From: a virus | Reading direction: 5' to 3' (one strand) | Length of the DNA stretch: 64,000 bases | IMG/VR virus record: IMGVR_UViG_3300012922_000007 | Span: 1-64,000 of that record | Shown here: piece by piece, positions 1,243 through 56,085 of the stretch | Layout: each line of letters starts with the position of its first letter | Position numbering within the stretch: position 1 is the stretch's first letter | Position numbers and translations under genes: made by a program | Notes under the pieces: generated by a model | What the model saw: only the letters and a program-made list of their open reading frames with translations | Told to the model about the DNA's origin: nothing | The model's database searches: none

Positions 1243-3306
1243 TTATTCTGAACTACCGAAACCCTGACCACCAGGTTCACCAGTAATCGCGAACGGCATA
1301 GCAGATTTCTCTAATGATTGGCGGAGAACATCTCTACCCGCCCTTGCAATATTTTCGGCATCAACAAGTTGAAGTTTATTGTTTTGTTGCTGCTGCGTCT
1401 GTTGTGCCTGAACCTGCGCTTTAGCCTGAACCTGTGCTCCAGGCTGCATGGCTTGCCATCTCTGCTGATCTTCCGGACTCATATCCACGATTACGTCGCT
1501 GAAGTTCTTCCAGTCGGAGACCTCGAACAACATACGGAGGACCTCGACCATATCAACTTTCTTACTTTGAATAGCGAGTTGATTTTCAGTCTGCTGGTTC
1601 GTAATGAACTGTATCATGATAGGTAAAGCCTGAGCCATGTTCTTACGAGCGAGAAGCTTAGCACCTGCTGAGATATTGAATCGTACACCGGCATTCAGGA
1701 TCTCGATGATATCGTTTTGACCCTGCATATACGCACTCTGCAACTCATCACTTAGAATGTACTTAATAGTTGCAGTAGGTAGCAACGAACGGTTAAGCTC
1801 GTGGGCTGCGTACAGGAAAGGAATAATAACCTGATTAGCAAGTTTCTCGACAAAGTCTGAGATCCGGTTGCCCTGACCACCGGAGAGCAGGTTCGCTCCT
1901 GCGGCGGTTCGGGCAAGATTCGAGTGTCCGCTTGATCCAGCGAACCCGGTTGCAGACTCGCCTAGTGCGGCGAATTGCTCGACTCTATTCTGAGATAACT
2001 GAAGGTGTTCACCGGCTTCTGGGACAGCGGGCTGACGTTCGAGGGGAGCAAAGTCGCCCTTAGCATCGACCTCGACTATCTTACCGGGAGAAATACGAAT
2101 ACTCTGTGTAGGAACGCTCTTGCCCTTGACTCGAATATAAACACCATTCAGGTTCAAGGTCGCTTGATCGATCCAGGTATTCGTGATACCCTGTTGCAGT
2201 CTTTGTTCCGGGCCAATGACCTTGCCTAGACCAAGACTCCAGAAAGCTTCTGGAACATCCCACCAACCTACGGACAAAAACGGGATTACGCCGTAGGGAT
2301 TATTATCGTTACAAATAACTAATTTCTTGTTGAGGACAACGATATAACTATCCGGGGTCCATCGCTCTAGAACTTCGAGAGGCTGGTCAAACGGATCAAT
2401 AGTCGTGTCCTCGTAGCGCATAGTTGCTCGTGCGTCCCACAATGGGTTACGCAACATGTTCTCTTGAGCAGCCTGCTCTACGGGTTCCTTAGGAGGAAGG
2501 AACAATTCGAGTAGTTCGCCTCGACTAGGAATCTCAAAGCCAGGACGTTCTCTAAGTTTATCGAGATCATTCCACGTAAGGTAAAGACGATGGATAACAT
2601 ACTTAGCCTTACGAATATCCGGAACCTGGAGACCTGGATCGATCATAACATGTCTCATACTGACGATATGTTCGAACGTCGGGCGGTCTACATATTCTTC
2701 GACAATCTCCTCGTCTATCTGATCGTCGTCAGGATGAATCGTAACACTACCACTGCTTACCTGGACTTGGGTAGTGTTGTCTTTACGTTTATAGACCTTG
2801 CGTTCACGAGTGAAAGTCTCCCATCCCCACTTCCAGATAGAAGTACCAAATAGGACAGCGTTGATAGTACCGAGGCGAATCTCTTCTTTAAAATTGATGT
2901 CTTGAAGCTGATAGTCTAGAAGATCGCCAATCGCATCGGCTACAATCTTTTTTGTCCCCGGACGATTCTGTGTCATGAACGGAGGATTGTCATAAAACAA
3001 TCCGTTCACGATCTGAGGAGTTATAGCATTAACCGCGTGTGCCACAGTGAAGAAAGGAACATTGGCTTTCTCAGTCTGCGTACCTTCCCAGTAGCGGGCA
3101 GTATAGGGGGATTGATAGAGCGTGTTAGCAGAAACCCAGCCTAAGACGAATTGTTTCGAACTTTCGAAAGATTCTGCTCTAATAGTATCTTGTAATACAA
3201 GGCGCAAAGCAGCGTCATCTTCCCACAGACCAGTAGCAAGAACATGTTTTGCTTGGTCAGGAGTTACTGGTCCATACGCATCAAATCCGGGGCGTTCGAG
3301 CAACAT
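1243..3306 (-). CDS. Portal protein (head-tail connector)
   Basis: A 687-residue protein with portal features: an N-terminal helical region, a central segment GTSIWKWGWE, a wing region with acidic insertions near 190-210, a crown-like helical region (ERWTPDSYIVVLNKK, then RLQQGITNTWIDQ), and a Gln-rich C-terminal tail. Portals form the dodecameric ring through which DNA is packaged. The length fits podovirus-type portals. The start overlaps the end of an inserted GIY-YIG gene by 26 bp, and the terminase gene lies upstream. I infer the family from overall pattern, not an alignment. Confidence 0.85.
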   Translation of the reverse strand: MLLERPGFDAYGPVTPDQAKHVLATGLWEDDAALRLVLQDTIRAESFESSKQFVLGWVSANTLYQSPYTARYWEGTQTEKANVPFFTVAHAVNAITPQIVNGLFYDNPPFMTQNRPGTKKIVADAIGDLLDYQLQDINFKEEIRLGTINAVLFGTSIWKWGWETFTRERKVYKRKDNTTQVQVSSGSVTIHPDDDQIDEEIVEEYVDRPTFEHIVSMRHVMIDPGLQVPDIRKAKYVIHRLYLTWNDLDKLRERPGFEIPSRGELLELFLPPKEPVEQAAQENMLRNPLWDARATMRYEDTTIDPFDQPLEVLERWTPDSYIVVLNKKLVICNDNNPYGVIPFLSVGWWDVPEAFWSLGLGKVIGPEQRLQQGITNTWIDQATLNLNGVYIRVKGKSVPTQSIRISPGKIVEVDAKGDFAPLERQPAVPEAGEHLQLSQNRVEQFAALGESATGFAGSSGHSNLARTAAGANLLSGGQGNRISDFVEKLANQVIIPFLYAAHELNRSLLPTATIKYILSDELQSAYMQGQNDIIEILNAGVRFNISAGAKLLARKNMAQALPIMIQFITNQQTENQLAIQSKKVDMVEVLRMLFEVSDWKNFSDVIVDMSPEDQQRWQAMQPGAQVQAKAQVQAQQTQQQQNNKLQLVDAENIARAGRDVLRQSLEKSAMPFAITGEPGGQGFGSSE

Positions 3307-4626: not shown

Positions 4627-6630
4627 TTACCAATCTATCATGCTACCAAGCCCATCCGAAAATTGATTATTTCGAGGCGCTGGTTCTGGTTCCGAAGGTT
4701 TGACCTCAACCAAAGGCTGAGGCACTTCACCGAATCCTAGTCTTCCGAAGGCATCTGCAGGTAATTCCGAGTCCGACAACCAGGGTCCGAACATGAGGTT
4801 ATACTCAGCTTGTGCTCGACTATTCGGCATCGGTGTCATCTGAGGACCGAAGTTCTTTGCCCCCGGTAGTCCAGATGCGGACAACATCCGATTCATTCGT
4901 GGCGCATACGTAAGCTGCCTACTGATAGAATCTGGAATGTCATTCTTAGTCTGTTTATGAAGCAAGCACTTCTGGAACTCAGAATACAGTTCTTTCAGAT
5001 ACGGTAGATGAGCCACAAAGCGAAGTTTGCTCTCAAAAAGATACGGATGAAGTGCCGCCATCCTCGTCTGTTTCGCGCCGTCTTCTTTAGTGGGCTTTAT
5101 CCAGTCGATTTTGCTGCAAACTGCAATAGTAGCCGGGTCCCCTGTCTTGAGAGCCTCGGATATAATCGTCGGTTCAATGAGATCGCTTCCAGCAGCGTTC
5201 TCGATTCCTATAACAAAAGGACGCCACTTGCGGGCGCACGAGACGACGGCTTTAGCGAGGTCAAGTGGTGTGAACCTCTGGCGGATAAGATCTATTACAA
5301 CCATCCCGCCTTTTTCATCCCAGACTACGGTGGAGCAGACACAGAAATCTCTGTCTTTCTTTCGACTAAAGGCAAAGTCCCAGGTCTGAGAAATTGGCCC
5401 TCGCATTGGCATTTCGCTAATCGGAATCGTATTTCTCTGAAGCAAGGGCAAATCAAACGCTGTAGCAGTCTGAATACGGGGGTTCTGATTATATTGACCC
5501 TCCATGATGAATTCATCATCACGCCATTCCATAAGCAACTTAGAATAATCTAACAGCTTAGGAAGAAGAAAGTCACAACCTTCTGGCCCTGCTTCTATAT
5601 AACTTACTTGTCGTCCTTCATCTTCAATTCTTTTCTTGACCTCGGGCTTAATTACAATAGCCCTAGCAATCATGAAAGAAGTCTTAAGCGAGGTATTAGT
5701 AATTATTTCTACGCAAGGACCATCGGTAGTAATTGTTACATCCCCGATATTTAGTTTCTCGATATCGATACCGTACATATCGTCATCGAGATAGCGAGTC
5801 CCTACTTTATATACATAACCCCACGGACGAAGTGTCTTTTTATTAATTCCAAAGTCTTTTGAAATCTTGGCACATTGTTCTACTGATGTAGCGTTATCAT
5901 TTGAAACTACGTCGTCTGCAATCATTACTTCATAGTGACGACCAGAAATATTAGCACCAATAGAAATAGCATTTACAGTGCTTTCTTTTCTCTTTGTGCC
6001 GGGATTCTTATTGTACCATTTTGGACAACGATAGCCCTGAGAGGCTACGAAATCCTCGTCTGATACACACCACTCTGGAAAGAACAGATTCATCAGAGTA
6101 GGCGTTTCTTCTCGCAACACAAAATGAGCTTTAAGCTCTTCGACTAGACCGAAAGCCAAAGGGTCAGTAGCAGTAATAAAACAAATACGAATATGAGGAA
6201 AATTTAATATCCATTGAACTGCTTCAACAATGGTTAGCGTGCTCTTTATTCCACCACGAGGCCACAACAATCCTCGTGTTTTAATATCCTTATCTTGATC
6301 GGCTAGAGCTTTTGTCTTGTCTTTCTGGACATAGAACTTGGCTATTCTACCGTGTGTATCTTCTCTAAGCGCGTTGTTTATATGCGGTTGACCCGCGCCT
6401 TCTGGATTTGTTTCCCAGCAGAACCACCCGGCCAACCACAAAACATCTTGCTCACAACGTCGGATTACTTCTTGCCCAAGAGAACTTGAAGAAAGAGCCT
6501 CAAATCCATTCTGTTGGACAAACTCGGTATATTGATCTCGGTTCTCTAAGAGCAGACTATAGAGCCGGTCATTAGGAACTTCGCGCAGAGTCCGGAATTC
6601 GGACAAGAGACTCTCGATTGTATCGGGCAC
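4627..6630 (-). CDS. Terminase large subunit
   Basis: A 667-residue DNA-packaging motor. The ATPase part has a Walker A motif PRGGIKST (about 124-131), a Walker B with VMIADD (about 235-240) and a motif like FITATD (about 151-156). The C-terminal nuclease half has an RNase H-like start TWDFAFSRKKDRDF and a later acidic motif IGIENAAGSD. The motor cuts and pumps DNA through the portal encoded downstream. Its start codon lies inside the 3' end of the endonuclease VII-type gene (59 bp overlap). No small terminase subunit is evident beside it. Confidence 0.93.
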   Translation of the reverse strand: MPDTIESLLSEFRTLREVPNDRLYSLLLENRDQYTEFVQQNGFEALSSSSLGQEVIRRCEQDVLWLAGWFCWETNPEGAGQPHINNALREDTHGRIAKFYVQKDKTKALADQDKDIKTRGLLWPRGGIKSTLTIVEAVQWILNFPHIRICFITATDPLAFGLVEELKAHFVLREETPTLMNLFFPEWCVSDEDFVASQGYRCPKWYNKNPGTKRKESTVNAISIGANISGRHYEVMIADDVVSNDNATSVEQCAKISKDFGINKKTLRPWGYVYKVGTRYLDDDMYGIDIEKLNIGDVTITTDGPCVEIITNTSLKTSFMIARAIVIKPEVKKRIEDEGRQVSYIEAGPEGCDFLLPKLLDYSKLLMEWRDDEFIMEGQYNQNPRIQTATAFDLPLLQRNTIPISEMPMRGPISQTWDFAFSRKKDRDFCVCSTVVWDEKGGMVVIDLIRQRFTPLDLAKAVVSCARKWRPFVIGIENAAGSDLIEPTIISEALKTGDPATIAVCSKIDWIKPTKEDGAKQTRMAALHPYLFESKLRFVAHLPYLKELYSEFQKCLLHKQTKNDIPDSISRQLTYAPRMNRMLSASGLPGAKNFGPQMTPMPNSRAQAEYNLMFGPWLSDSELPADAFGRLGFGEVPQPLVEVKPSEPEPAPRNNQFSDGLGSMIDW

Positions 6631-14478: not shown

Positions 14479-14516
14479 CTATTTAATTAGACGAGGCAAA
14501 CGGGTGAAAAGGCGCA
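14479..14516 (-). promoter_or_regulatory. Putative ECF-type late promoter, copy 1
   Basis: Read leftward: TGCGCCTTTT, 11-12 nt, then TCGTCTAATTAAATAG. One of five copies with identical spacing. It points into the virion block, with the first start codon about 170 bases downstream. Confidence 0.75.
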
Positions 14517-15391: not shown

Positions 15392-15429
15392 CTATTTAGT
15401 TAGACGAAAAAAGTCACCGATAAGGCGCA
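15392..15429 (-). promoter_or_regulatory. Putative ECF-type late promoter, copy 2
   Basis: Read leftward: TGCGCCTTATC, then TCGTCTAACTAAATAG with the same spacing as the other four copies. It drives the small-gene cluster 15349-14529 and perhaps the whole virion block. Confidence 0.75.
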
Positions 15430-28147: not shown

Positions 28148-28681
28148 ATGAAAGAAATAGAGTTAACCCAGGGCTACAAAGCTTTGGTGGACGACGAAGA
28201 CGAAGCCAAGGTAAATCAGTTTACTTGGTGTGCTATGGTTAGAAATAATAAAGACGGCTCGTTTCGTACAGTCTACGCACAAACATCTCTTGGAGTGGAC
28301 GAAAAAGGAAAAAGTGTTAGGATATATTTACATCGGTTTATACTCGGTATAGTTGATCCTAAAGTTTTAGTGGATCACAAAGACTATAACGGATTAAATT
28401 GCCAAAAAGAGAACCTCCGAATTGCAGCTGATGGCCAAAATCCATGGAATGCTCGGATTTCAAAAAGCCATAAGACAGAATCTAAATACAAAGGCGTAAC
28501 GTTGTATAAAAGCCACGGCAGAGTCATAGGATACAAGTATAATATATGCAAGAAAGGTGAAAAGTTTTCGGAACGGGGATTTGAAACCGAGGATGAGGCT
28601 GGTCGAGCTTACGATAAAAAAGCCAAGGAGCTTTTTGGAGAGTACGCTTATCTAAACTTTCCGGATGAACAGGAATCTTAA
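28148..28681 (+). CDS. HNH homing endonuclease with AP2 domain
   Basis: 177 residues: MKEIELTQGYKALVDDED, then LHRFILGI and VDHKDYNGLNCQKENLR (HNH), then an AP2-type domain (YKGVTLYKSHGRVIGYKYN, EDEAGRAYDKKAKELFG). Related to the protein at 16632. It separates the amidoligase and amidotransferase genes, so it has probably invaded that operon. The start follows AGGAGGAAT. Confidence 0.87.
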   Translation: MKEIELTQGYKALVDDEDEAKVNQFTWCAMVRNNKDGSFRTVYAQTSLGVDEKGKSVRIYLHRFILGIVDPKVLVDHKDYNGLNCQKENLRIAADGQNPWNARISKSHKTESKYKGVTLYKSHGRVIGYKYNICKKGEKFSERGFETEDEAGRAYDKKAKELFGEYAYLNFPDEQES

Positions 28682-28703
28682 ATTAAACTAACGGAGGATG
28701 TAT

Positions 28704-30068
28704 ATGTGCGGTATTTTTTGTGTTGCAAATAAAGAGGGTTACGAGCCAAAATTGGATATAGCCATTCCAATTATGGCATTGATAATGGAAGAGAGGGGTA
28801 GACACAGTTTTGGCCTCTCTGATGGTGTGGAAATTATCAAAGACACGGGGCCAATTTCTTCTGGATTGACTGTAAACATGTTTACGGGAAAGAAGGAGCT
28901 AATAGCCCACACTAGACACGCCACTCACGGTTCTCAAACTAAACAAAACGCGCATCCTTTTGAATTCGGAGAAGGAGAAAATAAAATTATTGGTTTGCAC
29001 AATGGAGTATTAGTTAATCACGATAAGATGAACGAAGAACACAACAGAAAATTCGAGGTTGATTCTTGTCACATATTTCAGCATATTCTTGAAAACAAAC
29101 CACTTAAGGACATCCAGGGCTACGGTGCGGTAGCTTTCTTCCAGCGTGGTAAAATGTATCTTGGTAGATTTAATGGAGGCCAGCTGGCTATTGCAAGAAC
29201 AAAATTTGGAATAGTTGCGGCTTCGACTCAAGAAGCTGTTTACAAAGCTTTAAAAATATCCGGCTTGGAATTGGAATGTTTTTATGAGGTTCTGGATGAA
29301 AAACTTTATATGGTAGAAGAAGGTCTTTTATTTAACACTGACAGAGATTTCCGCTTCGGCTCTCGCTACCAGCCCATAACCAACAACTATCACGGACATT
29401 ACGAACCCCATGATTGGAGGCAAGGTTCGAATTACTATGAAGGAGCACGAGGCCGATGGATCAACAATCACTGGGAAGAGGGTAAATGGATCAACAAAGA
29501 TACATTTGTCCCAGGAGAATGGAAAACTGGTAAATTCACTCCGAATGACGAGGGCAAGGCTCAATTATTTCTCCTCGGAGATGGTAAATCTAAGAAGGGA
29601 AAGCAGAAGACCAAGAGGGCTGTCGCTGACTCAGATGCAGATAACTGCTGTCTATGTCAGTGTTTGTTCTCAGTCGAGGAAGAAACTTGGGACAGTCCCT
29701 TCGGTGAGTTATGCGATAGCTGCATGATGACTTGTTTTCGGGCTCAAATGGAAGAGGAGACCGAGGTCATTGAACTTGAAGCAACTATCGAGAACTCAGT
29801 AGGCGAGGGTATCCATAAACTGGACGATCCGTTTATTTCTACAACAGTCCGAGACTTTCTAAAGGAGCTAACAGATAAAGAAGCAGCAAGCAATAGATGC
29901 AATAAAGAGACAATGCAAGGATCGTGTGACGAATGTGCAGTTACAGTTAGCAACGATGATAAGATATTTGTTGATAAAGCCGACGGCCACATAGTAAAAT
30001 GGATTTTGTGTGTTGGATGTCATCATCAACTAACAACTCCATATAACACAGAATTTCCAATCTGTTAA
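28704..30068 (+). CDS. Class II glutamine amidotransferase-like protein
   Basis: 454 residues. It starts MCGIFCVANKEGYEP; removal of Met would expose Cys2, the nucleophile of Ntn-type glutaminases. Further family motifs are HTRHATHGSQTKQNAHPF, GLHNGVLVNHDKM and GYGAVAFF. The C-terminal 200 residues are Trp/Gly-rich repeats (GRWINNHWEEGKWINK), then two Cys clusters (CCLCQC, CDSC, CDEC, CVGCHH). The enzyme would free ammonia from glutamine or hydrolyse a gamma-glutamyl amide for the neighbouring ligases. I chose the second ATG because GGAGG is 6 bases away and Cys must be residue 2. Confidence 0.85.
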   Translation: MCGIFCVANKEGYEPKLDIAIPIMALIMEERGRHSFGLSDGVEIIKDTGPISSGLTVNMFTGKKELIAHTRHATHGSQTKQNAHPFEFGEGENKIIGLHNGVLVNHDKMNEEHNRKFEVDSCHIFQHILENKPLKDIQGYGAVAFFQRGKMYLGRFNGGQLAIARTKFGIVAASTQEAVYKALKISGLELECFYEVLDEKLYMVEEGLLFNTDRDFRFGSRYQPITNNYHGHYEPHDWRQGSNYYEGARGRWINNHWEEGKWINKDTFVPGEWKTGKFTPNDEGKAQLFLLGDGKSKKGKQKTKRAVADSDADNCCLCQCLFSVEEETWDSPFGELCDSCMMTCFRAQMEEETEVIELEATIENSVGEGIHKLDDPFISTTVRDFLKELTDKEAASNRCNKETMQGSCDECAVTVSNDDKIFVDKADGHIVKWILCVGCHHQLTTPYNTEFPIC

Positions 30069-30120
30069 GTCTTGAATCTGGATATCGAGGTCAAACTCCG
30101 TGTCCAGAATTGAGGATTTT

Positions 30121-30408
30121 ATGGATAAACCTATTGGATTAATGATATACTCCAAAAACGAGGGAAACAAATATTATGTGTTTTGTAGTGTTTGTTCCAA
30201 AAATAATAAGATGTACTGGAGTAGCTTAGAACCCTTAAAAGGAAGATCGTGGCCAATTTACAGAGAGAATATCGGAGTTTTTGGCCAGAAATGCCATTGG
30301 AACGGATGTAGAAATTTTTTAGTAGAAGGTCATCTTGATTTATTTCCTAATCCGAATGACGAGCACCTCAGTCTAAACTCTCCCTCGGAGATACTAAATG
30401 GCGGATAA
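30121..30408 (+). CDS. WPIY zinc-ribbon family member 1
   Basis: 95 residues, MDKPIGLMIYSKNEG, FCSVC, then SWPIYRENIGVFGQKC and a second Cys. Ends SPSEILNGG. First of six copies before the ATP-grasp gene. The start is set by agreement with its paralogues and GAGG upstream. Function unknown. Two Cys pairs probably hold one zinc. Confidence 0.78.
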   Translation: MDKPIGLMIYSKNEGNKYYVFCSVCSKNNKMYWSSLEPLKGRSWPIYRENIGVFGQKCHWNGCRNFLVEGHLDLFPNPNDEHLSLNSPSEILNGG

Positions 30409-30679
30409 ACCAATCGGCTACCTCGGATTTAATCGAAGAAATTGCGATCATCTGTGCTATTGGTGTATAAGATGTTACGAGCATTATAGTATAGCGAGGC
30501 GGAGTTATTGGAGTAACAACACGTGGCCGATATTCGAGGATCATCTCCAGAAGTTTAGACTTAAATGTCGTCAAGGATGTGGGAATATCCATAATCCGGA
30601 CGAGCCAGAAGAATTTTTAAATAGTGAACTTGTTGAAACTCTTGTCCCCGAATTATTCGACGAACCGGAGGAAGACTAA
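30398..30679 (+). CDS. WPIY zinc-ribbon family member 2
   Basis: 93 residues, MADKPIGYLGFNRRN, CIRC, TWPIFEDHLQKFRLKC, C. Overlaps member 1 by 11 bp and touches member 3. The acidic C terminus (ELFDEPEED) differs from the others. Confidence 0.78.
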   Translation: MADKPIGYLGFNRRNCDHLCYWCIRCYEHYSIARRSYWSNNTWPIFEDHLQKFRLKCRQGCGNIHNPDEPEEFLNSELVETLVPELFDEPEED

Positions 30680-31068
30680 TGCCTTACGTTCCAGCGGGTA
30701 ATGCAACAAATAGACAGGCGACCTCGTATGTCCCTCTAGCACCTAGAGAATGGATTGATGATCCCGAGGGCATTGGATTTATATTGTATTATGCACCGTA
30801 TAGGAGGTATCACTGGTTTTGTAAGAAATGTTATTTAACTGATGAAAAATCATGGGATGCGTATAAAAGCGTGGATAGTGACGAGGGAAACGGTTTATTT
30901 TGGTCGTATAAGGACCAATTCAAAAATATGAGGCAAATTTGTGGTGTGGGGTCATGTACGTTTATTTTGGAAGGGATGGGTTTAAATACGTTTCCCAGTG
31001 ATACTGGAGCTTTACCCTCGCCTACCGAAATTTTAGCTCAAATTACGGGGAGAAACAATGTCAGGTAG
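30679..31068 (+). CDS. WPIY zinc-ribbon family member 3
   Basis: 129 residues. An extra 25-residue N terminus precedes GIGFILYY, then FCKKC, FWSYKDQFKNMRQIC, C, and ALPSPTEI. The WP motif is reduced to W. Confidence 0.75.
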   Translation: MPYVPAGNATNRQATSYVPLAPREWIDDPEGIGFILYYAPYRRYHWFCKKCYLTDEKSWDAYKSVDSDEGNGLFWSYKDQFKNMRQICGVGSCTFILEGMGLNTFPSDTGALPSPTEILAQITGRNNVR

Positions 31069-31543
31069 ATCAGTAGTAGATGTTTGGTACCACGGTTGCC
31101 GCTACGAGGTTCTACGAGGTCAAGCACCTGGATGGGGACTAAGAATCTTCTTTAACGTAGAAGATGATGAGGATCTGTGGGTTCTCGACTCCAGTTCATC
31201 TGTAAAAACTAAGATTGATCCGATGGGAACATACTATGTCTCGCATTATGAGAGATTTTACTCTATCTCTAAGAAAGTAATAGGTTTCCGCAAGGAAGGT
31301 CCGAGGGTAACGCATATCAAGAGCGGGGATAAATTCGATAAATACGTAGACCGTCCGACGAAATGGACTCCGAATAACCGAGCAATCCTGAAGGATTTGG
31401 ATAGATATCGAATCTGGTTGACCTCGCAACCTGAATTGGTCGAGGCGGCTCGTAAAGAGTTGAAAAACAAGGTGTTAGGTTGCTGGCATAGTCCGAAGGC
31501 CGGATTTGCAGATATTTTGCTGAAAGTGGCTAACGAGGAATAA
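31058..31543 (+). CDS. Hypothetical protein between family members
   Basis: 161 residues, alpha/beta, with VDVWYHGCRYEVLRGQAPGW at the start and a helical basic end. It overlaps the preceding gene by 11 bp. No family is recognised. Its place in the cluster suggests a shared role. Confidence 0.68.
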   Translation: MSGRSVVDVWYHGCRYEVLRGQAPGWGLRIFFNVEDDEDLWVLDSSSSVKTKIDPMGTYYVSHYERFYSISKKVIGFRKEGPRVTHIKSGDKFDKYVDRPTKWTPNNRAILKDLDRYRIWLTSQPELVEAARKELKNKVLGCWHSPKAGFADILLKVANEE

Positions 31544-31544
31544 C

Positions 31545-31709
31545 ATGAAAAAGCCAAAGTTTCGTTCTGATCCGTTGACTAAAATTAGAGAACTTCTGGA
31601 TGAAAATAACCGCCAAAAGGAAGAAATATCAAGGCTCGAAAACAGAATATTAACCTTGGAAGCTAGAGTTCATATTTCTAATCTTCGAAACGAAATTGAC
31701 GATATTTAA
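31545..31709 (+). CDS. 54-residue coiled-coil protein
   Basis: MKKPKFRSDPLTKIRELLDE, then a leucine-zipper-like helix (EEISRLENRILTLEARVHIS). Starts after CGAGGAAT and lies 10 bp before the next gene. Confidence 0.68.
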   Translation: MKKPKFRSDPLTKIRELLDENNRQKEEISRLENRILTLEARVHISNLRNEIDDI

Positions 31710-31718
31710 AGGAATAAT

Positions 31719-31982
31719 ATGCCAGATACTCCTGTAGGATATCTACTGTGGTGGCCGAGGACAAAGAAATATTACCTGTATTGTACTATATGTGCAAGTG
31801 GGCCTCGAAGAGAACGTTGGACTACTGCACGAGGACCAAGTTGGCCAATCTATAAAGAACTAGTTGGAAATTATTCACAAAGATGCCACGATTGTGGAAG
31901 AATAACTTTTATGGGCGAAGATTTTCTGTTTCCGGACGAATTTTTGATAGGTTTACCCGGACCTGAGGCCATAAATGCCTGA
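31719..31982 (+). CDS. WPIY zinc-ribbon family member 4
   Basis: 87 residues, MPDTPVGYLLWWPRTKKYYL, CTIC, SWPIYKELVGNYSQRC, DCG, LPGPEAINA. One of the two most typical members. Overlaps member 5 by 8 bp. Confidence 0.8.
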   Translation: MPDTPVGYLLWWPRTKKYYLYCTICASGPRRERWTTARGPSWPIYKELVGNYSQRCHDCGRITFMGEDFLFPDEFLIGLPGPEAINA

Positions 31983-32250
31983 AGAACCAATAGGATATCT
32001 GCTCTGGTGGAATCCGCAAAACCGATGGTTTTATTATTGCCCAGAATGTTCAAAAGTAAATATAAACCATTGGAGACAGCAGGAAGCCAAGTTTTGGCCA
32101 GTATACATTGAACATATAGGGAAATATTCTCAAAAATGTGGGAATTTTCACGAAAATGGTCGTTATAGTTTGTGCGGAGAAGTCTCTACTGTACTATTTG
32201 ACCAAGAATCACTTTTTACTTTGCCTAGACCCGAGGATATTCATGCGTAA
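31975..32250 (+). CDS. WPIY zinc-ribbon family member 5
   Basis: 91 residues, MPEEPIGYLLWWNPQNRWFY, CPEC, FWPVYIEHIGKYSQKC, a longer gap to the last Cys, LPRPEDIHA. Clearly a tandem duplicate of member 4. Confidence 0.8.
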   Translation: MPEEPIGYLLWWNPQNRWFYYCPECSKVNINHWRQQEAKFWPVYIEHIGKYSQKCGNFHENGRYSLCGEVSTVLFDQESLFTLPRPEDIHA

Positions 32251-32473
32251 AGACGCTCTTTTTCCTACTAAAACTAGCCTCGTGTTTAATTTCCGAGGTC
32301 TGCCCTCCTACACAGGAGGACATCGTTTTATTTGTGGCCATATTCAAATATGCGGGGATCATGTCCAACGAATCAAAGAACCCGACGTTTGCTGGGATTG
32401 TTTCAAGGCTATCCGTATTCTGGAAAGTTCTAAGAGTCATAGGGTAATTCAGAAAAGAACGAGGTCAAAATGA
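32243..32473 (+). CDS. Cys/His zinc protein in the cluster
   Basis: 76 residues, MRKDALFPTKTSLVFNFRG, then FICGHIQICGDHVQ and CWDCF. It does not share the WPIY motif. It overlaps members 5 and 6, so it is co-translated with them. Confidence 0.68.
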   Translation: MRKDALFPTKTSLVFNFRGLPSYTGGHRFICGHIQICGDHVQRIKEPDVCWDCFKAIRILESSKSHRVIQKRTRSK

Positions 32474-32895
32474 GCGAGCCTGTTGCGTATTTGTTTTGGT
32501 ATACTTATGGGCCTAGGTGGTATATATTTTGTCCTAGATGTTATAGGGACAGCTGGACCCAAGAATCAAATAAGAAGTACATCTATCCGGTATTCGAGGA
32601 GTATGTTCAGAAATTCCATCTAATATGTCATTCTGGTTGTATTATATCAGGTAAAGAGGAAGATCCTATTTTTGTAAACGCAGATACTACCTCTTTGCCG
32701 TCTCCAAATGAAATTCGAGATGAAATTCGAGGAGAAAATCAGGCAGGCAGTAGTCCGAGTTTCAGAGTTCTGGAACCAATGATATTTAACATACCTGCCG
32801 AGCAGCCATCTCGGAATTATCGAAATTACTTTTCTTATTCTACTAGCACTGATATCTCCAATATCAGGATTGTTCCTAATACAGAGGAAATATGA
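32470..32895 (+). CDS. WPIY zinc-ribbon family member 6
   Basis: 141 residues, MSEPVAYLFWYTYGPRWYIF, CPRC, IYPVFEEYVQKFHLIC, C, SLPSPNEIRDEI, then about 50 extra residues rich in Asn, Ser and Tyr. The start follows CGAGGTCAAA. Confidence 0.78.
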   Translation: MSEPVAYLFWYTYGPRWYIFCPRCYRDSWTQESNKKYIYPVFEEYVQKFHLICHSGCIISGKEEDPIFVNADTTSLPSPNEIRDEIRGENQAGSSPSFRVLEPMIFNIPAEQPSRNYRNYFSYSTSTDISNIRIVPNTEEI

Positions 32896-33035
32896 ACCTC
32901 GGAGACATTGGAGCTTGGGCAGGCGCTATTTTATCTTTAGTCTCGGCTATAGGCTACGCCTTCGCCGGGGATTATCGAAGGGCCTTGTACTTTGGATTCG
33001 CATTTGCTTTGACGTTAACGATTATCTGGAAATAA
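32892..33035 (+). CDS. 47-residue two-span membrane protein
   Basis: MNLGDIGAWAGAILSLVSAI, a short charged loop (GDYRRA), then a second hydrophobic segment. The ATG overlaps the previous stop. Position directly before the ATP-grasp gene. Confidence 0.68.
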   Translation: MNLGDIGAWAGAILSLVSAIGYAFAGDYRRALYFGFAFALTLTIIWK

Positions 33036-33048
33036 CGAGGTCAAAAAC

Positions 33049-33861
33049 TTGAAATACATTCTTAGACGCCGAGGTATGGGCCGAGACTCGTGCCGACTGA
33101 TTGCACAACACAGCACCACGGGTCTCAAAGTTATTCGTAATGACAAATATCAACCCGAGGCCAATTTCCTATTCCGGTGGGGAACTCTCTCAAATGTCCG
33201 GAATCCGGAAAGAGAGATTAACTCTTCCGAGGCTATTCACCTAGCTGCGAATAAGGCAGAGTTTAGGAAGGTATTGCAAGAGGAAAATTTGGCCCCGAAG
33301 ACGTGGTACAATGGATTTGTGTCTTATCCTTGCATAGTCCGACCTTTGCAACATAGCGGAGGACAGAATTTATATGTTTGTAAGGACAGCCTCGATCTAC
33401 AAGCTGCAATTCGAGCGTGTAACGGACAATTTTACGCCTCGGAATTAATAAACAAGAAAGCCGAGTTTAGAGTATATACAGTATCTGGACGAGCCATAGG
33501 TGTGTCCCAGAAATTCCCTCGGGATGCTAATTCGGTTGCTTGGAACGCTAGATGCGGCGGTACGGTGCAGACTGTTAGCTGGGATAACTGGCCTCTACGT
33601 GTACTTAAGTCGGCTATTCGGGCTGATGAACTCTCTGGTTTAGATTTTGCTGCCCTCGATTTGATTGTGGATAACGAGGACAAAGTCTATGTCCTTGAAT
33701 CTAACAGTGCTCCGTCGGTGTCAGATTATCGTGCTAAGTGTTTTGCGAGAGCTTTCGATTATATTATTGCTAACGGAAAAACTCGAATTCCTCTTGTGGG
33801 GCGTCTTGGAGGATGGAGAAAATTTCTCCACCCGTCCTTGTCCTCGGAGGTTTGGCTATGA
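33049..33861 (+). CDS. ATP-grasp ligase (RimK-like)
   Basis: 270 residues from a TTG after CGAGGTCAAAAAC. It shows an N-terminal small domain, a central ATP-binding segment (YPCIVRPLQHSGGQNLYVC), FYASELINKKAEFRVYTV, and the metal-binding C-terminal motif GLDFAALDLIV with VLESNSAPSVS. ATP-grasp ligases activate a carboxylate as acyl phosphate and join it to an amine. With the amidoligase and the Ntn amidotransferase this makes three enzymes of amide chemistry within 7.4 kb. The substrate is unknown. Confidence 0.85.
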   Translation: MKYILRRRGMGRDSCRLIAQHSTTGLKVIRNDKYQPEANFLFRWGTLSNVRNPEREINSSEAIHLAANKAEFRKVLQEENLAPKTWYNGFVSYPCIVRPLQHSGGQNLYVCKDSLDLQAAIRACNGQFYASELINKKAEFRVYTVSGRAIGVSQKFPRDANSVAWNARCGGTVQTVSWDNWPLRVLKSAIRADELSGLDFAALDLIVDNEDKVYVLESNSAPSVSDYRAKCFARAFDYIIANGKTRIPLVGRLGGWRKFLHPSLSSEVWL

Positions 33862-34780: not shown

Positions 34781-35127
34781 GAGGACATCCGGCGCAAAAA
34801 GCCTTTGAAATTGACCTTTCGGATGCCCTCGCGAAATTTAACGCTAAAACACGAGGTCGAAGCACTGAAGCGCAGCAATGGAAGCAACTTTTCGTGGCTG
34901 CGACCCTCTGCGGATTCGATATTCAGGTCTTGGACGTTGACCTCGTAGTAGTCACAGAAATCCAGAATCCGGACAAAGATATGACGGATAGATGGACGAG
35001 GAACAGGGACTTGTATTGTCAGCAGCGGGCTATTGTACAGAACGATATCAACAGTTCATATCCGGAACGTTGGCAACCTAATAGCCTCGATTTAGAAATA
35101 ATGAAGGACCTCGGAATTAGTGTTTAG
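34777..35127 (+). CDS. Hypothetical protein
   Basis: 116 residues, MRGHPAQKAFEIDLSDALAK. Two halves: a basic helix and an alpha/beta part. Start in an ATGA overlap after GGGAGG. Its end overlaps the end of the convergent gene by 4 bp. No domain is recognised. Confidence 0.65.
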   Translation: MRGHPAQKAFEIDLSDALAKFNAKTRGRSTEAQQWKQLFVAATLCGFDIQVLDVDLVVVTEIQNPDKDMTDRWTRNRDLYCQQRAIVQNDINSSYPERWQPNSLDLEIMKDLGISV

Positions 35128-35378
35128 TCCTCGGAAATAGACGGAGCTTGAACCGGGTCTGGTAATTTGACCACGCCCGCAACAAAGCCGTTTGGATCGG
35201 CGGGCAAAACTACGGCAATTTGGATAACAATCACTGGTTGTCTGGCAGGAGTCCCGTCTAACCCGAGGCCGGAAGATTCATCAATTATAGAACCAAAGGC
35301 TGTGTTGCCAAGACCCATTGAGAAGGCAATTCGGCTATTCTTGGAAAGTATTTGTCCACTAGTATCACGAAAAACCAT
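35124..35378 (-). CDS. Isolated leftward gene, virion-like
   Basis: 84 residues on the minus strand, MVFRDTSGQILSKNSRIAF, Gly/Pro/Val-rich and beta-like. The start has its own CGAGGTC site. No plus-strand gene with a good start covers this interval. The leftward late promoter at 35876-35913 points at it, with the HNH gene lying in between on the other strand. That suggests a late gene separated from its promoter by an insertion. Confidence 0.65.
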   Translation of the reverse strand: MVFRDTSGQILSKNSRIAFSMGLGNTAFGSIIDESSGLGLDGTPARQPVIVIQIAVVLPADPNGFVAGVVKLPDPVQAPSISED

Positions 35379-35394
35379 TGAAAGGACCTCGTAT

Positions 35395-35883
35395 ATGATT
35401 GATATTAAAACAGCTATTGAAAAATATGGAGCTTGTGAGCACGGGATAATGCCTTATGATACTCCCGATCCGATAAGTCGAAATAATCCTTGCATTTTAT
35501 GCAAAAGAGAATCAACTCTATTAGCACTAAGAAAACGATTTTTATCGGGTAAAACCCAGGCCGATGTAGCTAAGCGTCGAATGCACATATGGAACGCAGG
35601 AGGCAATTTTACTCCAGAAGAATGGCTAGAACGTTTTGACTATTGGGGTAAATGTTGTGTTTTGTGTAATATAGAACTAACCTTACAGAAAAAACACTCT
35701 AATACTGCAACTGTGGGTCATTTGATCCCGGTATCAGAAAAATGGCCGAATAGCAGCAACGAAGCTTGGAATATCGCTCCAATGTGTAAATCTTGTAATT
35801 CCTCTCAAGGAGACCGATATGCTTTAGAAGAATATCCTAAGGGATCTAAAATACTTAGAAAATTCTACAAACACTCTATCTAG
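35395..35883 (+). CDS. HNH endonuclease
   Basis: 162 residues, MIDIKTAIEKYGACEHG, C-x2-C, then WGKCCVLCNIELTL, GHLIPVSEKWPNSSNEAWN and MCKSCNSSQGDR. Zinc-Cys pairs around an H-N core are clear. I chose the ATG at 35395 because longer frames overlap the leftward gene and lack a site. It lies antisense between a late promoter and its gene. Confidence 0.85.
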   Translation: MIDIKTAIEKYGACEHGIMPYDTPDPISRNNPCILCKRESTLLALRKRFLSGKTQADVAKRRMHIWNAGGNFTPEEWLERFDYWGKCCVLCNIELTLQKKHSNTATVGHLIPVSEKWPNSSNEAWNIAPMCKSCNSSQGDRYALEEYPKGSKILRKFYKHSI

Positions 35884-35913
35884 TTAGACGAAGAGAGCAT
35901 AGAAAAAGGTGCG
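35876..35913 (-). promoter_or_regulatory. Putative ECF-type late promoter, copy 3
   Basis: Read leftward: CGCACCTTTTT, then TCGTCTAACTAGATAG with the family spacing. It points through the HNH gene to the leftward gene at 35378. Two changes (A for G, G for A) from the consensus. Confidence 0.7.
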
Positions 35914-35929
35914 AAATGTTGTCTAAAAA

Positions 35930-35967
35930 CGCGCCTTTTTGTACGTTTTGATCGTCAAATTAAACAG
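35930..35967 (+). promoter_or_regulatory. Putative ECF-type late promoter, copy 4
   Basis: CGCGCCTTTTT, then TCGTCAAATTAAACAG with the family spacing, 13 bases before the first start codon of the sigma-factor operon. Together with copy 3 it forms a divergent pair with 16 bp between. If the sigma factor uses it, expression is self-reinforcing. Confidence 0.75.
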
Positions 35968-35979
35968 AGAAAGGTTCAC

Positions 35980-36144
35980 ATGAACGACTTTCCATATCTA
36001 CATTCCGAGGACATCGGCACATCTCCAGTCGGGTTCGTATATTCACAGCCAGTGTTCTACTACTATCCTCAATCTGCTGAAAATAGAGAGGTTGTGCGAC
36101 GGCGTCAATTAATTGACCTCGGACGAGGTGAGACTCGTGACTGA
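35980..36144 (+). CDS. 54-residue leader gene of the sigma operon
   Basis: MNDFPYLHSEDIGTSPVGFV, ending in a basic stretch. It begins after AAAGG and overlaps the sigma start by 8 bp, so it may couple sigma translation to its own. Confidence 0.68.
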   Translation: MNDFPYLHSEDIGTSPVGFVYSQPVFYYYPQSAENREVVRRRQLIDLGRGETRD

Positions 36145-36712
36145 ACTATTGGGCGAAGTTTTATCATACGATCCATCAGGAGTACGAGAAGATACGGAAC
36201 TGATTGAATCCTACAAAAACGGAGATACCGAAGCATTTGGTAAGCTATTCGAAAAATACAAGCATTTTGTCTATAATTGCTGTATTAAGGCACTAAAAAA
36301 TCCGGAAGATGCCGAGGATGTTTCTCAGAATGTTTGGGTTCATTTTTCAGCCTATCTCTTTCAATTTAAAGAAGATTGTTCTGTTCGCACGATTCTTTTC
36401 CGAATTTCAAAAGATCGCTCCATAGACTATATTCGTCAGAAAGATACGAGGTCAGAAGAAGAACAATATTCTCCTGAAGACTTGAAGGAATTATATGCCT
36501 ATTCCAAAGAATCCCCCGACCAGGATCTCCTAGTAAATGATATGCTTAAGTCGCTTGAACCCGAGGAAAAAGCCCTCGTAATTGCTATGGTATTCGAGGG
36601 TCATACAGGCGAGGAAGATGATCTAGCAGGCAAACTTGGAGTTGCGAGGTCAACCGTAAGTCGCAGATTAGACAGAGCTTTAGAGAAATTACGAGGTGAA
36701 ATTAATGGTTGA
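36137..36712 (+). CDS. ECF-type RNA polymerase sigma factor
   Basis: 191 residues from a GTG after GAGGTGAG. Region 2: DTEAFGKLFEKYKHFVYNCC, then NPEDAEDVSQNVWVHF and FRISKDRSIDYIRQ. A linker of about 45 residues follows. Region 4: LEPEEKALVIAMVFEG and LAGKLGVARSTVSRRLDRAL, the DNA-binding helix-turn-helix. There is no region 3, as in ECF factors. It would direct host polymerase to phage promoters, most likely the five-copy family described here, one of which precedes its own operon. An earlier TTG at 36113 is possible. Confidence 0.9.
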   Translation: MTELLGEVLSYDPSGVREDTELIESYKNGDTEAFGKLFEKYKHFVYNCCIKALKNPEDAEDVSQNVWVHFSAYLFQFKEDCSVRTILFRISKDRSIDYIRQKDTRSEEEQYSPEDLKELYAYSKESPDQDLLVNDMLKSLEPEEKALVIAMVFEGHTGEEDDLAGKLGVARSTVSRRLDRALEKLRGEING

Positions 36713-37707: not shown

Positions 37708-39786
37708 TTGATACATTGTCATGTAGATTTCGAGAGTAGGTCGCTAAAGGACCTTACTGAAGTGGGAATTGACGTGTATTCAAACGATACGAGTACGCAG
37801 GCGATTCTCCTCGCTTGGGCTATTGATGATGAGCCGGTTAGCATAGTGAGTCTTCTCCGGGATTCTCTACCTAACCGGCTGCTGGAGGCTGTCCATAATC
37901 CGGATGTTATAATGGTAGCCTGGAATTCAATGTTCGAGCGCCACATATTTGCCAAGTGTCTTGGGATAGTGATACCTATTGAACGGTGGCACGATCCGAG
38001 GATAACTGCGAGGTTTGCCTCTATTCCTGGAAGCCTTGAAGAATGTGGGAAGATTTTAAATCTTCCCCTCGAACAACGAAAACTTAAAGAGGGCCATGAT
38101 TTAATCCAATTGTTCAGTATGCCTTATAGAACCGGAGGCGAAGAGACATTATTTGGAATCCAGCCTGCGGAATTCCACGATTGGAACGATAGACCGGAAG
38201 AGTGGAGCCGGTTCGAAGAATATTGTAAACAGGATGTAGCCTGCGAGCGCTTTATTATGAAGGCGTTGCGGGGATTTAAGCTACCTGAAAAAGAGATTCG
38301 AGGATGGTGGTTGGATCAAAGGATTAATGATCGTGGCTTAAAAATTGGATTAGATTTAGTCGGAAATGCTCTAAAACTAGCCGAAAAAGAAAAAGAAGAT
38401 ATTTTATCTAATTTATCAGAAAAAACTGGTCTGGCAAATCCTAATTCTAATCCTCAGATGCTTGCGTGGATAAAAGAGAGAGGATATGTTTTCTCTAGTA
38501 TGGGTAAAGCTTTTGTTGCTAGAGCGTTGGCGGGGGAAAGTCCTCTTACGCCGGAATGTAAAGAGGTCCTTGAACTACGACAGCTATCCTCTCGAACCAG
38601 CTACACCAAGTATATTAATATTCAGAATAGAACTGGACTGGATGGACGACTTCGAGATCAATTTTCATTTTTAGGTTCATCTAGGGCCGGAAGATGGGCA
38701 AGTTTAGGCGGAGCACAGCTCCACAATCTCCCGAGACCTACTAAAGAAGTTAGCAAAAATATGGATTTAGCTGTGGATCTGCTTAGAAAAGGAAATTTTG
38801 AAGAGATTAGATCAAAATTTTCTGATCCAATGGCACTAGCGGTTAGCTGCGTGCGCTGCGCTATTGTTGCAGACAAAGATAAAAACTTGGTGGTAGCGGA
38901 CTATGGGGCTGTGGAAAACAGAGTATTAGGATGGGTGGCGAGGTGCGACGGTATTCTAAAAGTTTTCCGAGATAATCTTGATCCATATGTTAGTTTTGGT
39001 ACATTTATGCACGGTAAATCTTATGAAGAATTAGATCCAGAAGCAAAAGGAATTACGGAGGAAGAAAAAGCAGCTCGAAAAGAGAAAAGACAAGAAGCAA
39101 AACCTGCGGTTTTAGGAGCAGGCTATCGCCTTGGAGGCGGACAGCTTGGTACAGATAAGTTTGGGAACGAAATTCGCACGGGGCTTTGGGGATATTCGAA
39201 GGCTATGGGAGTCGACCTTCCTCAAGAAGAATGCGAAAGAATTGTAGCAGTATTTAGAGCTGCCTATCCTGAAGTTTGTCATCTTTGGTACGATCTTGAA
39301 AATGCTTCTTTCGATTGTCTGGATGGCGGTAAGCATGAGGCCGGCCGATGCGTATTTGAAGCATTCGGAGGCGTGGATAGATTTGATAGAAAGCTCATGC
39401 GAATTACTTTGCCATCCGGCAGGGGGCTTCACTATATAAGACCTCGTGTTGAATCAAGGGAATTTTTCGGTAAACCAAAGAAAACACTAGTATACGAGGG
39501 CATTCATCAGCAAACAAGGAATTGGGAACCTACCACTACACACGGTGGAAAATTAACAGAGAACATCGTGCAAGGGATAGCAAGAGATCTTTTAATGGAA
39601 GCAATGCTTGCTGCAGAAGAAGAAGGATATTTTATTGTTGCCCATGTTCATGATGAAATTGTGTGCGAGGAAAAAGAATTAGGTTTAGAAGGTTTGATTA
39701 AAATAATGATTAAACCACCCGATTGGGGGCAAGATTTACCTTTGTCGGCAGAAGGCTATATCAGTAAATATTACAAGAAAGGGTAA
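37708..39786 (+). CDS. Family A DNA polymerase with 3'-5' exonuclease
   Basis: 692 residues from TTG right after the previous stop. The exonuclease domain has D7 and E9 (VDFES), a middle Asp region (WNSMFERHIF) and YCKQDVACE. The polymerase domain has motif A VVADYGAVENRVLGW, motif B region KPAVLGAGYRLGGGQLG, and motif C VAHVHDEIVCE. There is no 5'-3' exonuclease domain, typical for phage replicases. The second half is visibly poorer in the CGAGG word than the first. Confidence 0.93.
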   Translation: MIHCHVDFESRSLKDLTEVGIDVYSNDTSTQAILLAWAIDDEPVSIVSLLRDSLPNRLLEAVHNPDVIMVAWNSMFERHIFAKCLGIVIPIERWHDPRITARFASIPGSLEECGKILNLPLEQRKLKEGHDLIQLFSMPYRTGGEETLFGIQPAEFHDWNDRPEEWSRFEEYCKQDVACERFIMKALRGFKLPEKEIRGWWLDQRINDRGLKIGLDLVGNALKLAEKEKEDILSNLSEKTGLANPNSNPQMLAWIKERGYVFSSMGKAFVARALAGESPLTPECKEVLELRQLSSRTSYTKYINIQNRTGLDGRLRDQFSFLGSSRAGRWASLGGAQLHNLPRPTKEVSKNMDLAVDLLRKGNFEEIRSKFSDPMALAVSCVRCAIVADKDKNLVVADYGAVENRVLGWVARCDGILKVFRDNLDPYVSFGTFMHGKSYEELDPEAKGITEEEKAARKEKRQEAKPAVLGAGYRLGGGQLGTDKFGNEIRTGLWGYSKAMGVDLPQEECERIVAVFRAAYPEVCHLWYDLENASFDCLDGGKHEAGRCVFEAFGGVDRFDRKLMRITLPSGRGLHYIRPRVESREFFGKPKKTLVYEGIHQQTRNWEPTTTHGGKLTENIVQGIARDLLMEAMLAAEEEGYFIVAHVHDEIVCEEKELGLEGLIKIMIKPPDWGQDLPLSAEGYISKYYKKG

Positions 39787-53416: not shown

Positions 53417-53454
53417 TGCGCCTTTTTACCTATTTGAATCGTCCAATTAAATAG
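53417..53454 (+). promoter_or_regulatory. Putative ECF-type late promoter, copy 5
   Basis: TGCGCCTTTTT, then TCGTCCAATTAAATAG with the family spacing, just after the primase-helicase stop and 13 bases before the next ATG. It opens the operon that leads to the lysis hydrolase. Confidence 0.77.
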
Positions 53455-53466: not shown

Positions 53467-54129
53467 ATGACAATCGAAGCCATTATAGAACAACCATTTA
53501 CCGATACCGAACTCGCAGAAGCCTCTCGTCTCAAGTCTGAGATCGATGAACTCCTCGGCTCGATCACTAGCCTCGAACGAAGTCTTCTGCAGGGTTGGGC
53601 GAGGTTAAGTTCTAATCTATACGAGGTCAGGGAAAAGAAGTATTGGCTTGAATATGGGTTTAACTCCTTTGGAAAGTACATCGTGGAGATAGGGGACAAA
53701 GTTGGCAAGGGTCGGTCGCAATTGTATATGGGAGTGAGAATTGTCGAACAATTGCCCGAGGTCAGTTCCGAGGATTTGACACAGATTGGTATCTCAAAAG
53801 CTGCAGAACTATGCAAGATTCGATCTGCGGGTAAAGCCGTGCCTCGTGAACTGATCGAACGAGCTAAGCGATCCGATGTAACGATCGAAGAAGTTCGGGC
53901 CGAAGTCTTCAATACTCTTCATGCAACTCCGGAAGAACGAGGTAAGTTCTTCGATCTAAGCGGGTTCCCAGTTACGGAAGACGAGCGTCTTCTCCTCGAA
54001 CATGCAATTGAAGTTGCCAAGAGGACCCCCCCAACAGTTCGCCACGACATTCCCGAATACATGCAGAAGAAAGAATGCTTCATACGTTTTGCCATGGAGT
54101 ACCTGAGTCAATACGAGGATGGTCAGTGA
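53467..54129 (+). CDS. Helical DNA-binding-like protein (DUF3102/ParB-like)
   Basis: 220 residues. A helical region WLEYGFNSFGKYIVEIGDKV, GKGRSQLYMGVRIVEQLP and IGISKAAELCKIRSAG looks like the DUF3102 / KorB-type helix-turn-helix of plasmid and phage proteins. It is the first gene after a late promoter. A role as a late regulator or DNA-partition factor is possible. It is a candidate reader of the dispersed palindrome, but this is speculation. Confidence 0.68.
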   Translation: MTIEAIIEQPFTDTELAEASRLKSEIDELLGSITSLERSLLQGWARLSSNLYEVREKKYWLEYGFNSFGKYIVEIGDKVGKGRSQLYMGVRIVEQLPEVSSEDLTQIGISKAAELCKIRSAGKAVPRELIERAKRSDVTIEEVRAEVFNTLHATPEERGKFFDLSGFPVTEDERLLLEHAIEVAKRTPPTVRHDIPEYMQKKECFIRFAMEYLSQYEDGQ

Positions 54130-55397: not shown

Positions 55398-55651
55398 TGT
55401 CTGAATTCACAGTACACGATCTTTTGAAAGATGTAATTATGAGTTCTGTTACAGACGAGGGAATGCCGGTATTTCTTATCTACGAGGAAGTTGCTTGTTC
55501 AGTAAATGACCTCGCATTTAGCTATGACCAGTTTATGGACTCTGTAGGATGCCTTGTAGAGAATAAGTATCTTAACGCAAACGAGGTTGATGGAGTTACG
55601 GAACTGTCGTTGTCTAAGGAAAACACTACGCCTAGGTTGGATGTCAATTAA
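55397..55651 (+). CDS. Hypothetical protein
   Basis: 84 residues, acidic, helical. Overlaps the lysis gene start (TAATG). No family is recognised. Confidence 0.64.
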   Translation: MSEFTVHDLLKDVIMSSVTDEGMPVFLIYEEVACSVNDLAFSYDQFMDSVGCLVENKYLNANEVDGVTELSLSKENTTPRLDVN

Positions 55652-56085
55652 TGGCGACCTTCGCAGATTTCGAGAAATCGATTGTCGCGTTAACTTGCCT
55701 TAGAGAGATGCGAGGCGAAGGAATAAATGCTATGTTGGCGGTAGCTTTTGTTCTTCGCAATAGAGCACAAGCTGGTTGGCACAGAAGCAGTCCATATCTT
55801 AACGCTATTGCAGCTAAGCAGTTTAGTTCTCTAACAATTTTAGGAGATCCTAATACTGTTTGGTTCCCCCCAGAGCCAAATGATCCGGAATTTGTTCAGC
55901 TCCTACATCTTATGGATGAAGTGTTTGATGAGAACAATCCTCGTGTAGATAATATTACTGGGAAAGCTCTTTACTATTGGGTTCCAGAGAATTCTACACC
56001 AAATGGTTGGTTTGCTAGAAATATAGCTAATAACCCAGATCATGCTCGGTGCGCGGTTATAGGTAGGACGGTTTTCTACAAATGA
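55651..56085 (+). CDS. SleB-type cell wall hydrolase (endolysin)
   Basis: 144 residues. REMRGEGINAMLAVAFVLRN and GWHRSSPYLNAIAAKQFSSL follow the hydrolase_2 / SleB pattern: Glu near the start and a cell-wall lytic fold that cleaves peptidoglycan glycan strands. It has no signal peptide, so a holin or export route is needed. Translated with the genes downstream of late promoter 5. ATGA overlap with the beta-helix gene. Confidence 0.84.
   Translation: MATFADFEKSIVALTCLREMRGEGINAMLAVAFVLRNRAQAGWHRSSPYLNAIAAKQFSSLTILGDPNTVWFPPEPNDPEFVQLLHLMDEVFDENNPRVDNITGKALYYWVPENSTPNGWFARNIANNPDHARCAVIGRTVFYK

What the first reader, a model, noticed from the sequence alone, without database searches (positions are those of the whole stretch)
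35876..36712. Phage ECF sigma factor with a five-copy candidate promoter family
TGCGCCTTTTT, 11 nt, TCGTCTAATTAAATAG occurs at 14479(-), 15392(-), 35876(-), 35930(+) and 53417(+), always with 16 nt between GGCGC and GACGA. Every copy points at a gene start or operon: virion block, isolated minus gene, sigma operon, lysis operon. The TCGTCTAA part resembles ECF -10 boxes, and an ECF sigma gene sits just downstream of copy 4. This suggests a late switch by an ECF factor, a design not usual in phages, with positive feedback.
Basis: partly seen in the sequence, partly recalled or inferred. Interest (0 to 1): 0.87.

Follow-up and report, generated by a model that had tools for sequence, protein, structure and literature searches.

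The report
Phage ECF sigma and late promoters
A soil bacteriophage carries its own ECF-type sigma factor and five near-identical ECF-style promoters, in front of its packaging/virion genes, a lysis-gene run and the sigma gene itself, so it most likely reprograms the host RNA polymerase to late genes through a self-reinforcing switch, a strategy shown experimentally in one unrelated phage group and predicted here in a second one.

Summary
Exactly five copies of [CT]GC[GA]CCTT-N14-TCGTC[TAC]AA[CT]TA[AG]A[TC]AGA occur in the whole 78.5-kb virus record. They score 41-45 bits against 6 for the next best site, and all are intergenic. The gene 36137-36712 encodes a genuine sigma2+sigma4 (ECF-type) sigma factor. 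Four copies sit upstream of co-directional genes: two at the head of the minus-strand packaging/virion block, one before the sigma operon, one before a run containing an endolysin-like gene. The fifth points antisense into an HNH gene. The nearest sigma-bearing relative found (IMGVR_UViG_3300046543_000819; portal 56% identical) has a syntenic sigma next to DNA polymerase A, and an unguided repeat search finds in it an eight-member bipartite family (-10 GC[AG]TCTAA), all intergenic, mostly before virion genes; there the presumed early genes and the sigma gene have sigma70-type promoters on the opposite strand. Best reading: an ECF late switch on host RNA polymerase, with positive autoregulation in this phage. 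It is not unprecedented: phiEco32 gp36 and especially phage 7-11 gp47 (bipartite late promoters, tested in vitro) work this way. New here are the phage lineage, the canonical ECF -10 and the autoregulatory copy. No transcript data exist.

The parts
14479..14516 (-). Promoter copy 1 (TGCGCC..TCGTCTAATTAAATAG), 182 nt from the -10 C to a possible TTG start at 14311; head of the minus-strand packaging/virion block
15392..15429 (-). Promoter copy 2 (TGCGCC..TCGTCTAACTAAATAG), 57 nt from the -10 C to the GTG start of 15143-15349; first gene of the minus block
35876..35913 (-). Promoter copy 3 (CGCACC..TCGTCTAACTAGATAG), divergent partner of copy 4, reads antisense into the HNH ORF
35930..35967 (+). 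Promoter copy 4 (CGCGCC..TCGTCAAATTAAACAG), 27 nt from the -10 C to the ATG at 35980; putative autoregulatory promoter of the sigma operon
35980..36144 (+). 54-aa ORF between copy 4 and the sigma gene; its end overlaps the sigma start; no family match
36137..36712 (+). ECF-type sigma factor, GTG start, 191 aa, sigma2 about residues 37-103, sigma4 about 137-186
   Evidence: TIGR02937 E=2.8e-22; PF04542, PF04545, PF07638 over cut-off; PDB sequence matches AlgU, SigW, RpoE; predicted sigma2 overlays E. coli sigmaE region 2 bound to its -10 element, 4lup, rmsd 1.0
35167..35883 (+). HNH endonuclease ORF (gene finder prefers start 35395), overlapped antisense by copy 3
   Evidence: PF01844 E=1.3e-4
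35124..35378 (-). 84-aa minus ORF, next minus ORF after copy 3, about 500 nt away; no family match
37708..39786 (+). DNA polymerase A-like gene downstream of sigma; same neighbour in relative G051
   Evidence: PF00476 E=4e-7, below the curated cut-off; 44% identity to G051 next to its sigma
53417..53454 (+). Promoter copy 5 (TGCGCC..TCGTCCAATTAAATAG), 27 nt from the -10 C to the ATG at 53467
53467..54129 (+). First gene after copy 5, unknown function; homologue in relative G074 lies just upstream of that phage's sigma
55651..56085 (+). Endolysin-like cell wall hydrolase in the run after copy 5
   Evidence: PF07486 E=5e-5, below cut-off; phrog_15649/938 lysis
4627..6630 (-). Terminase large subunit in the minus block served by copies 1-2
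   Evidence: phrog_38 E=2e-35
1243..3306 (-). Portal protein in the minus block
   Evidence: phrog_332 E=7e-26 and phrog_1216; 33% to the annotated Tunturi_3 portal

Best explanation
The phage encodes an ECF-type sigma factor (36137-36712) that binds the host core RNA polymerase and recognises a bipartite promoter: -35 GC[GA]CCTTtT, 17 nt from GCGCC to the -10 CGTCtAA. Five copies serve the packaging/virion block (two, minus strand), a run of genes with an endolysin-like protein, the sigma gene's own operon, and one antisense transcript. The sigma gene is first read from upstream early transcription; sigma then activates its own promoter and the late genes, giving a self-reinforcing late switch. 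Shown by sequence: the motif family, its geometry and placement, the ECF domains, and a matching arrangement with a syntenic sigma in a relative. Inferred: that this sigma (not a host one) reads the sites, that they start transcription, and that the timing is late.
For: Five sites far above background, all intergenic, constant promoter-type spacing. The -10 CGT fits the hallmark given for ECF promoters, and ECF genes are commonly autoregulated (PMC8103513). The sigma has sigma2 and sigma4 only, with a linker under 50 residues, and a predicted sigma2 like sigmaE region 2 bound to its -10 DNA. Copies 4 and 5 leave short leaders: 27 nt from the -10 C to the ATG. Relative G051 has a sigma 28% identical (E=1.6e-14), next to DNA polymerase A as here. 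It also has an eight-site bipartite family found without giving its sequence, -10 GC[AG]TCTAA, scores 26-57 bits against 6.5 for the next site, all intergenic; four sites lie before a tRNA gene at the head of the virion block (16349), the portal (21851), tRNAs and further block genes after the major head protein (28271) and a tail/decoration gene (42323). In G051 the sigma70-type TTGACA sites lie on the other strand before small presumed-early genes and before the sigma gene itself. In the short-sigma relatives scanned (G018, G002, G003, G074) no such family was found. Precedent for the mechanism: phage 7-11 gp47.
Against: No transcript, start-site or binding data. Only one relative shows the paired arrangement, and its -35 differs (TCGC-like with A/T-rich DNA upstream, against GCGCC). 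The -35 lacks the AAC usual in ECF promoters. Conservation runs about 9 nt past the -10, more than ECF promoters usually show. Copy 3 has no obvious gene. No sigma70-type promoter above chance was found in the region scanned for early genes (13.5-27 kb), so the assumed early stage is unseen. The record probably lacks about 16 kb of virion genes, so the full site list is unknown.
Confidence: 0.8

Rival explanations
1. The five sites are promoters, but they are read by a host ECF sigma (or host holoenzyme plus a phage activator); the phage sigma serves other sites.
For: Bacteria carry many ECF sigmas (two bacterial genomes reached here gave 23 and 11 sigma matches). Most related phage records have no detectable ECF sigma and must express late genes otherwise.
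Against: A relative with a syntenic sigma has a family of the same type, while the relatives without that sigma that were scanned do not. One copy is placed exactly at the phage sigma operon.
Confidence: 0.1
2. The repeats are binding sites for another DNA-binding protein (regulator, replication or packaging), not promoters.
For: Conservation extends beyond -10; copy 3 has no gene at promoter distance; intergenic palindromes GTCC-N5-GGAC in these phages show that non-promoter repeats exist.
Against: Bipartite form with ECF spacing, -10 typical of ECF promoters, strand agreement with the downstream gene in 4 of 5, short leaders before ATG in two copies, not palindromic.
Confidence: 0.07
3. Promoters of this sigma, but of a middle rather than a late class: the virion block is switched on mainly by something else.
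For: phiEco32 gp36 serves middle as well as late promoters; timing cannot be read from sequence.
Against: Two of five copies head the packaging/virion block; four sites in G051 lie before a tRNA gene at its virion block, the portal, further block genes and a tail gene, with sigma70-type sites kept to the other strand.
Confidence: 0.12

Closest known systems
Salmonella phage 7-11, sigma SaPh711_gp47 and its late promoters (PMC8948821)
   Same: Phage sigma with a sigma4-like C-terminus uses host core polymerase; eight bipartite late promoters GTAAtg-(16)-aCTA before late genes.
   Different: No detectable sequence similarity of the sigmas; different boxes; no 7-11 sigma promoter consensus upstream of its own gene, whereas copy 4 here sits before the sigma operon.
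E. coli phage phiEco32 gp36 (and SU10 gp32)
   Same: Phage ECF-type sigma for middle and late genes; early genes from sigma70 promoters; phages of similar size; SU10 also lists glutamine amidotransferase and ATP-grasp early genes.
   Different: gp36 promoters have one element (tAATGTAtA) and gp36 lacks homology to region 4; the SU10 sigma gene has a sigma70-type promoter. Here both elements and sigma4 are present.
crAss-like phage 'sigma-W' factors (e.g. cr6_1 YP_010112684)
   Same: Best sequence matches of this sigma among phage records (21-35% identity).
   Different: Unrelated phages; in the one genome scanned (cr6_1) the same search found no comparable promoter family.
Bacterial ECF sigmas (RpoE/AlgU, SigW)
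   Same: sigma2+sigma4 architecture, -10 CGT, autoregulation common.
   Different: No anti-sigma gene recognised next to it; -35 GCGCC instead of AAC-containing; targets are phage genes.

Membership tests
ECF (group IV) sigma factors | Only sigma2 and sigma4 domains, linker under 50 residues | tested here: met
   PF04542 at 37-103, PF04545 at 137-186, TIGR02937 over cut-off; PDB sequence matches to AlgU, SigW, RpoE
ECF (group IV) sigma factors | -10 element with CGT | tested here: met
   TCGTC[TAC]AA in 5 of 5 sites; that the sigma binds them is not shown
ECF (group IV) sigma factors | -35 element with AAC (early hallmark, later dropped from the definition) | tested here: not met
   GC[GA]CCTT in 5 of 5; the review says the definition was later restricted to the sigma2/sigma4 architecture (PMC8103513)
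ECF (group IV) sigma factors | Cognate anti-sigma gene co-transcribed (also dropped from the later definition) | tested here: inconclusive
   The 54-aa upstream ORF has no family match; no candidate recognised
ECF (group IV) sigma factors | Binds core RNA polymerase and directs initiation | not testable with these tools
   Needs biochemistry
phiEco32/7-11 type phage sigma late switch (works like) | Phage sigma plus a promoter family before virion genes | tested here: met
   same pairing in G051
phiEco32/7-11 type phage sigma late switch (membership by descent) | Homologous sigma and virion genes | tested here: not met
   No sequence similarity to 7-11 gp47; neither phiEco32 nor 7-11 among terminase or sigma hits in phage records
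Tunturi_3-like phages | Shared portal, terminase and tail genes | tested here: met
   33% portal, 29% terminase, 44% tail protein, 54% UvsX-like

The most novel reading that the evidence does not exclude
A self-amplifying ECF late switch in which the divergent pair 35876(-)/35930(+) has two jobs: the plus arm feeds back on sigma, while the minus arm makes an antisense transcript through the HNH gene that cuts off the upstream early operon, so one sigma both turns on late genes and shuts off the transcription that first produced it.
Probability: 0.2. Interest if true: 0.65.

Novelty: new variant of a known kind. Interest (0 to 1): 0.55.

Why it matters
It extends sigma-driven late transcription from phiEco32-like phages to a large, little studied group of soil phages. 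It offers a natural pair (this phage and G051) in which a sigma and its promoters appear to have changed together. It may be an autoregulated phage ECF switch, unlike the 7-11 sigma gene, which has no such site upstream. The prediction is concrete, to the base, and testable with bacterial core polymerase in vitro.

Tried and rejected
Exact-pattern scan of IMG/VR for the motif: 4 hits, about the number expected by chance, none with window homologues around them. Searching relatives for the same -35/-10 combination: only scattered hits at control level. Direct look-up of sigma, terminase and primase relatives by short peptides: nothing; the tail protein alignment worked. Assumption that every relative's sigma is the same lineage: rejected; G018, G002, G003/G046 and G074 carry a diverged short sigma, and in the four scanned no matching promoter family was found. 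Unrelated phages with an ECF sigma (G078, crAss-like cr6_1): no comparable family with this search. A phage single-subunit RNA polymerase as reader: none recognised among the large ORFs, though about 16 kb is missing. sigma70 promoters in the window's 13.5-27 kb region: not above shuffles. Structure model only moderate (mean pLDDT 67), used for the sigma2 domain only. One crAss-like phage paper (PMC7886860) was checked and mentions neither sigma nor promoters.

Full report
What was checked. The five copies exist as described, and only these five, in the whole 78,530-bp virus record of which the window is the first 64 kb. A PWM separates them from everything else (41-45 bits against 6.2), and a search of intergenic DNA that was not told the sequence (only a two-block layout) ranks the same family first. 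All five lie between genes, though only about a quarter of the sequence is intergenic by my gene calls. The invariant columns are GC.CCTT, then 14 nt, then TCGTC.AA.TA.A.AGA.

The sigma gene. The ORF 36137-36712 (GTG start, overlapping the end of a 54-aa ORF whose ATG lies 27 nt after the -10 C of copy 4) matches TIGR02937 at 2.8e-22 and Pfam sigma regions 2 and 4 over cut-off. By sequence it matches AlgU, SigW and RpoE in the PDB. A moderate AlphaFold model puts its region 2 on E. coli sigmaE region 2 bound to -10 DNA (4lup, rmsd 1.0 over 85 columns). It is an ECF-type sigma by architecture.

The phage. Portal, terminase, tail and recombination proteins are 29-54% identical to Tunturiibacter phage Tunturi_3, a podovirus of Acidobacteriota (PMC11924767). 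Tail-protein searches found about 80 related IMG/VR loci. Of 76 phage records searched (75 IMG/VR records and Tunturi_3), seven have a TIGR02937 match over cut-off; many records are fragments. Comparison with G051 suggests that about 16 kb of virion genes lie between the two ends of the window's record and are missing (inference).

The key comparison. G051 (IMGVR_UViG_3300046543_000819, 48 kb, 58.6% GC) shares portal (56%), terminase (45%), tail protein (48%) and polymerase A (44%), and has a sigma 28% identical in the same place next to polymerase A. The same layout-only search of its intergenic DNA gives, as its top three families, palindromes around GTCCGGAATCCGGAC, sigma70-type TTGACA sites, and a bipartite family ending in GC[AG]TCTAA. 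The last has seven plus-strand members and one minus-strand member, all intergenic, scoring 26-57 bits against 6.5 for the next site. They stand before a tRNA-Ser at the head of the virion block, the portal, tRNAs and further block genes, and a tail/decoration gene; others lie in gene-poor DNA. The sigma70-type sites are all on the minus strand, most before small genes, one of them before the sigma gene. So in G051 the two promoter classes are split by strand and module as expected for an early-to-late cascade. The -10 boxes of the two phages agree (C[GA]TCTAA); the -35 boxes only loosely (GCGCC against TCGC with A/T-rich DNA upstream).

Controls. G018, G002, G074, G003 and its near-twin G046 carry a shorter sigma lineage that is only marginally similar to this one; in G074 it lies directly after the homologue of gene 53467 rather than next to polymerase A. 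In the four scanned no matching promoter family was found and the -10 word is not clearly enriched between genes. Two unrelated sigma-bearing phages also gave none. These negatives come from one search method and are not strong.

Known cases. phiEco32 gp36 and phage 7-11 gp47 are phage sigmas, annotated ECF or close to sigma24-type factors, for late (and middle) genes; [quoted passage not shown]). There is no sequence similarity between gp47 and this sigma. The mechanism is therefore known; this is a further, independent-looking case with a canonical ECF -10 and an apparent feedback copy.

What is shown and what is not. Shown: the sites, their statistics and places, the sigma, and the paired arrangement in one relative. 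Inferred: promoter activity, that this sigma reads them, late timing, feedback, and any role of the antisense copy.

Noticed in passing
window, whole record; densest 15000-25000 (+): The word CGAGGTC(AA) occurs 108 times on both strands (1.38 per kb) against 0.06-0.23 per kb in five related phages; a few copies are at ribosome-site distance from starts, most are not. Unexplained.
   Followed up: partly
window 15898, 17323, 18275, 18647, 26341 and others; L213-L215, L216-L218, L081-L085: Palindromes GTCC-N5..7-GGAC recur between genes in this phage and its relatives (59 in G002, 30 of them intergenic), like operators of a repressor or another shared DNA-binding protein.
   Followed up: partly
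window 26390-33861: Amidoligase (PF12224), class II glutamine amidotransferase and RimK-like ATP-grasp genes close together, like the glutamine amidotransferase and ATP-grasp early genes listed for SU10, a phiEco32-like phage.
   Followed up: no
L079:8690-9178, L083:14127-14639, G074 28928-29431 (L217): A second, short (152-170 aa) ECF-like sigma lineage in related phages, preceded by a 350-380 nt gap without called genes in G018, G002 and G074.
   Followed up: partly
L086-L090 (G003) 69970, 72006, 72293, 73281 (+): Repeats GGGATTGTCCaCTAGGGAGTTTCCCCgATATAG in gene-poor DNA.
   Followed up: no
window 44479-45546: C-terminal part matches di-haem oxidoreductase PF06537 (E=3e-18) and weakly MauG, odd for a phage gene.
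   Followed up: no
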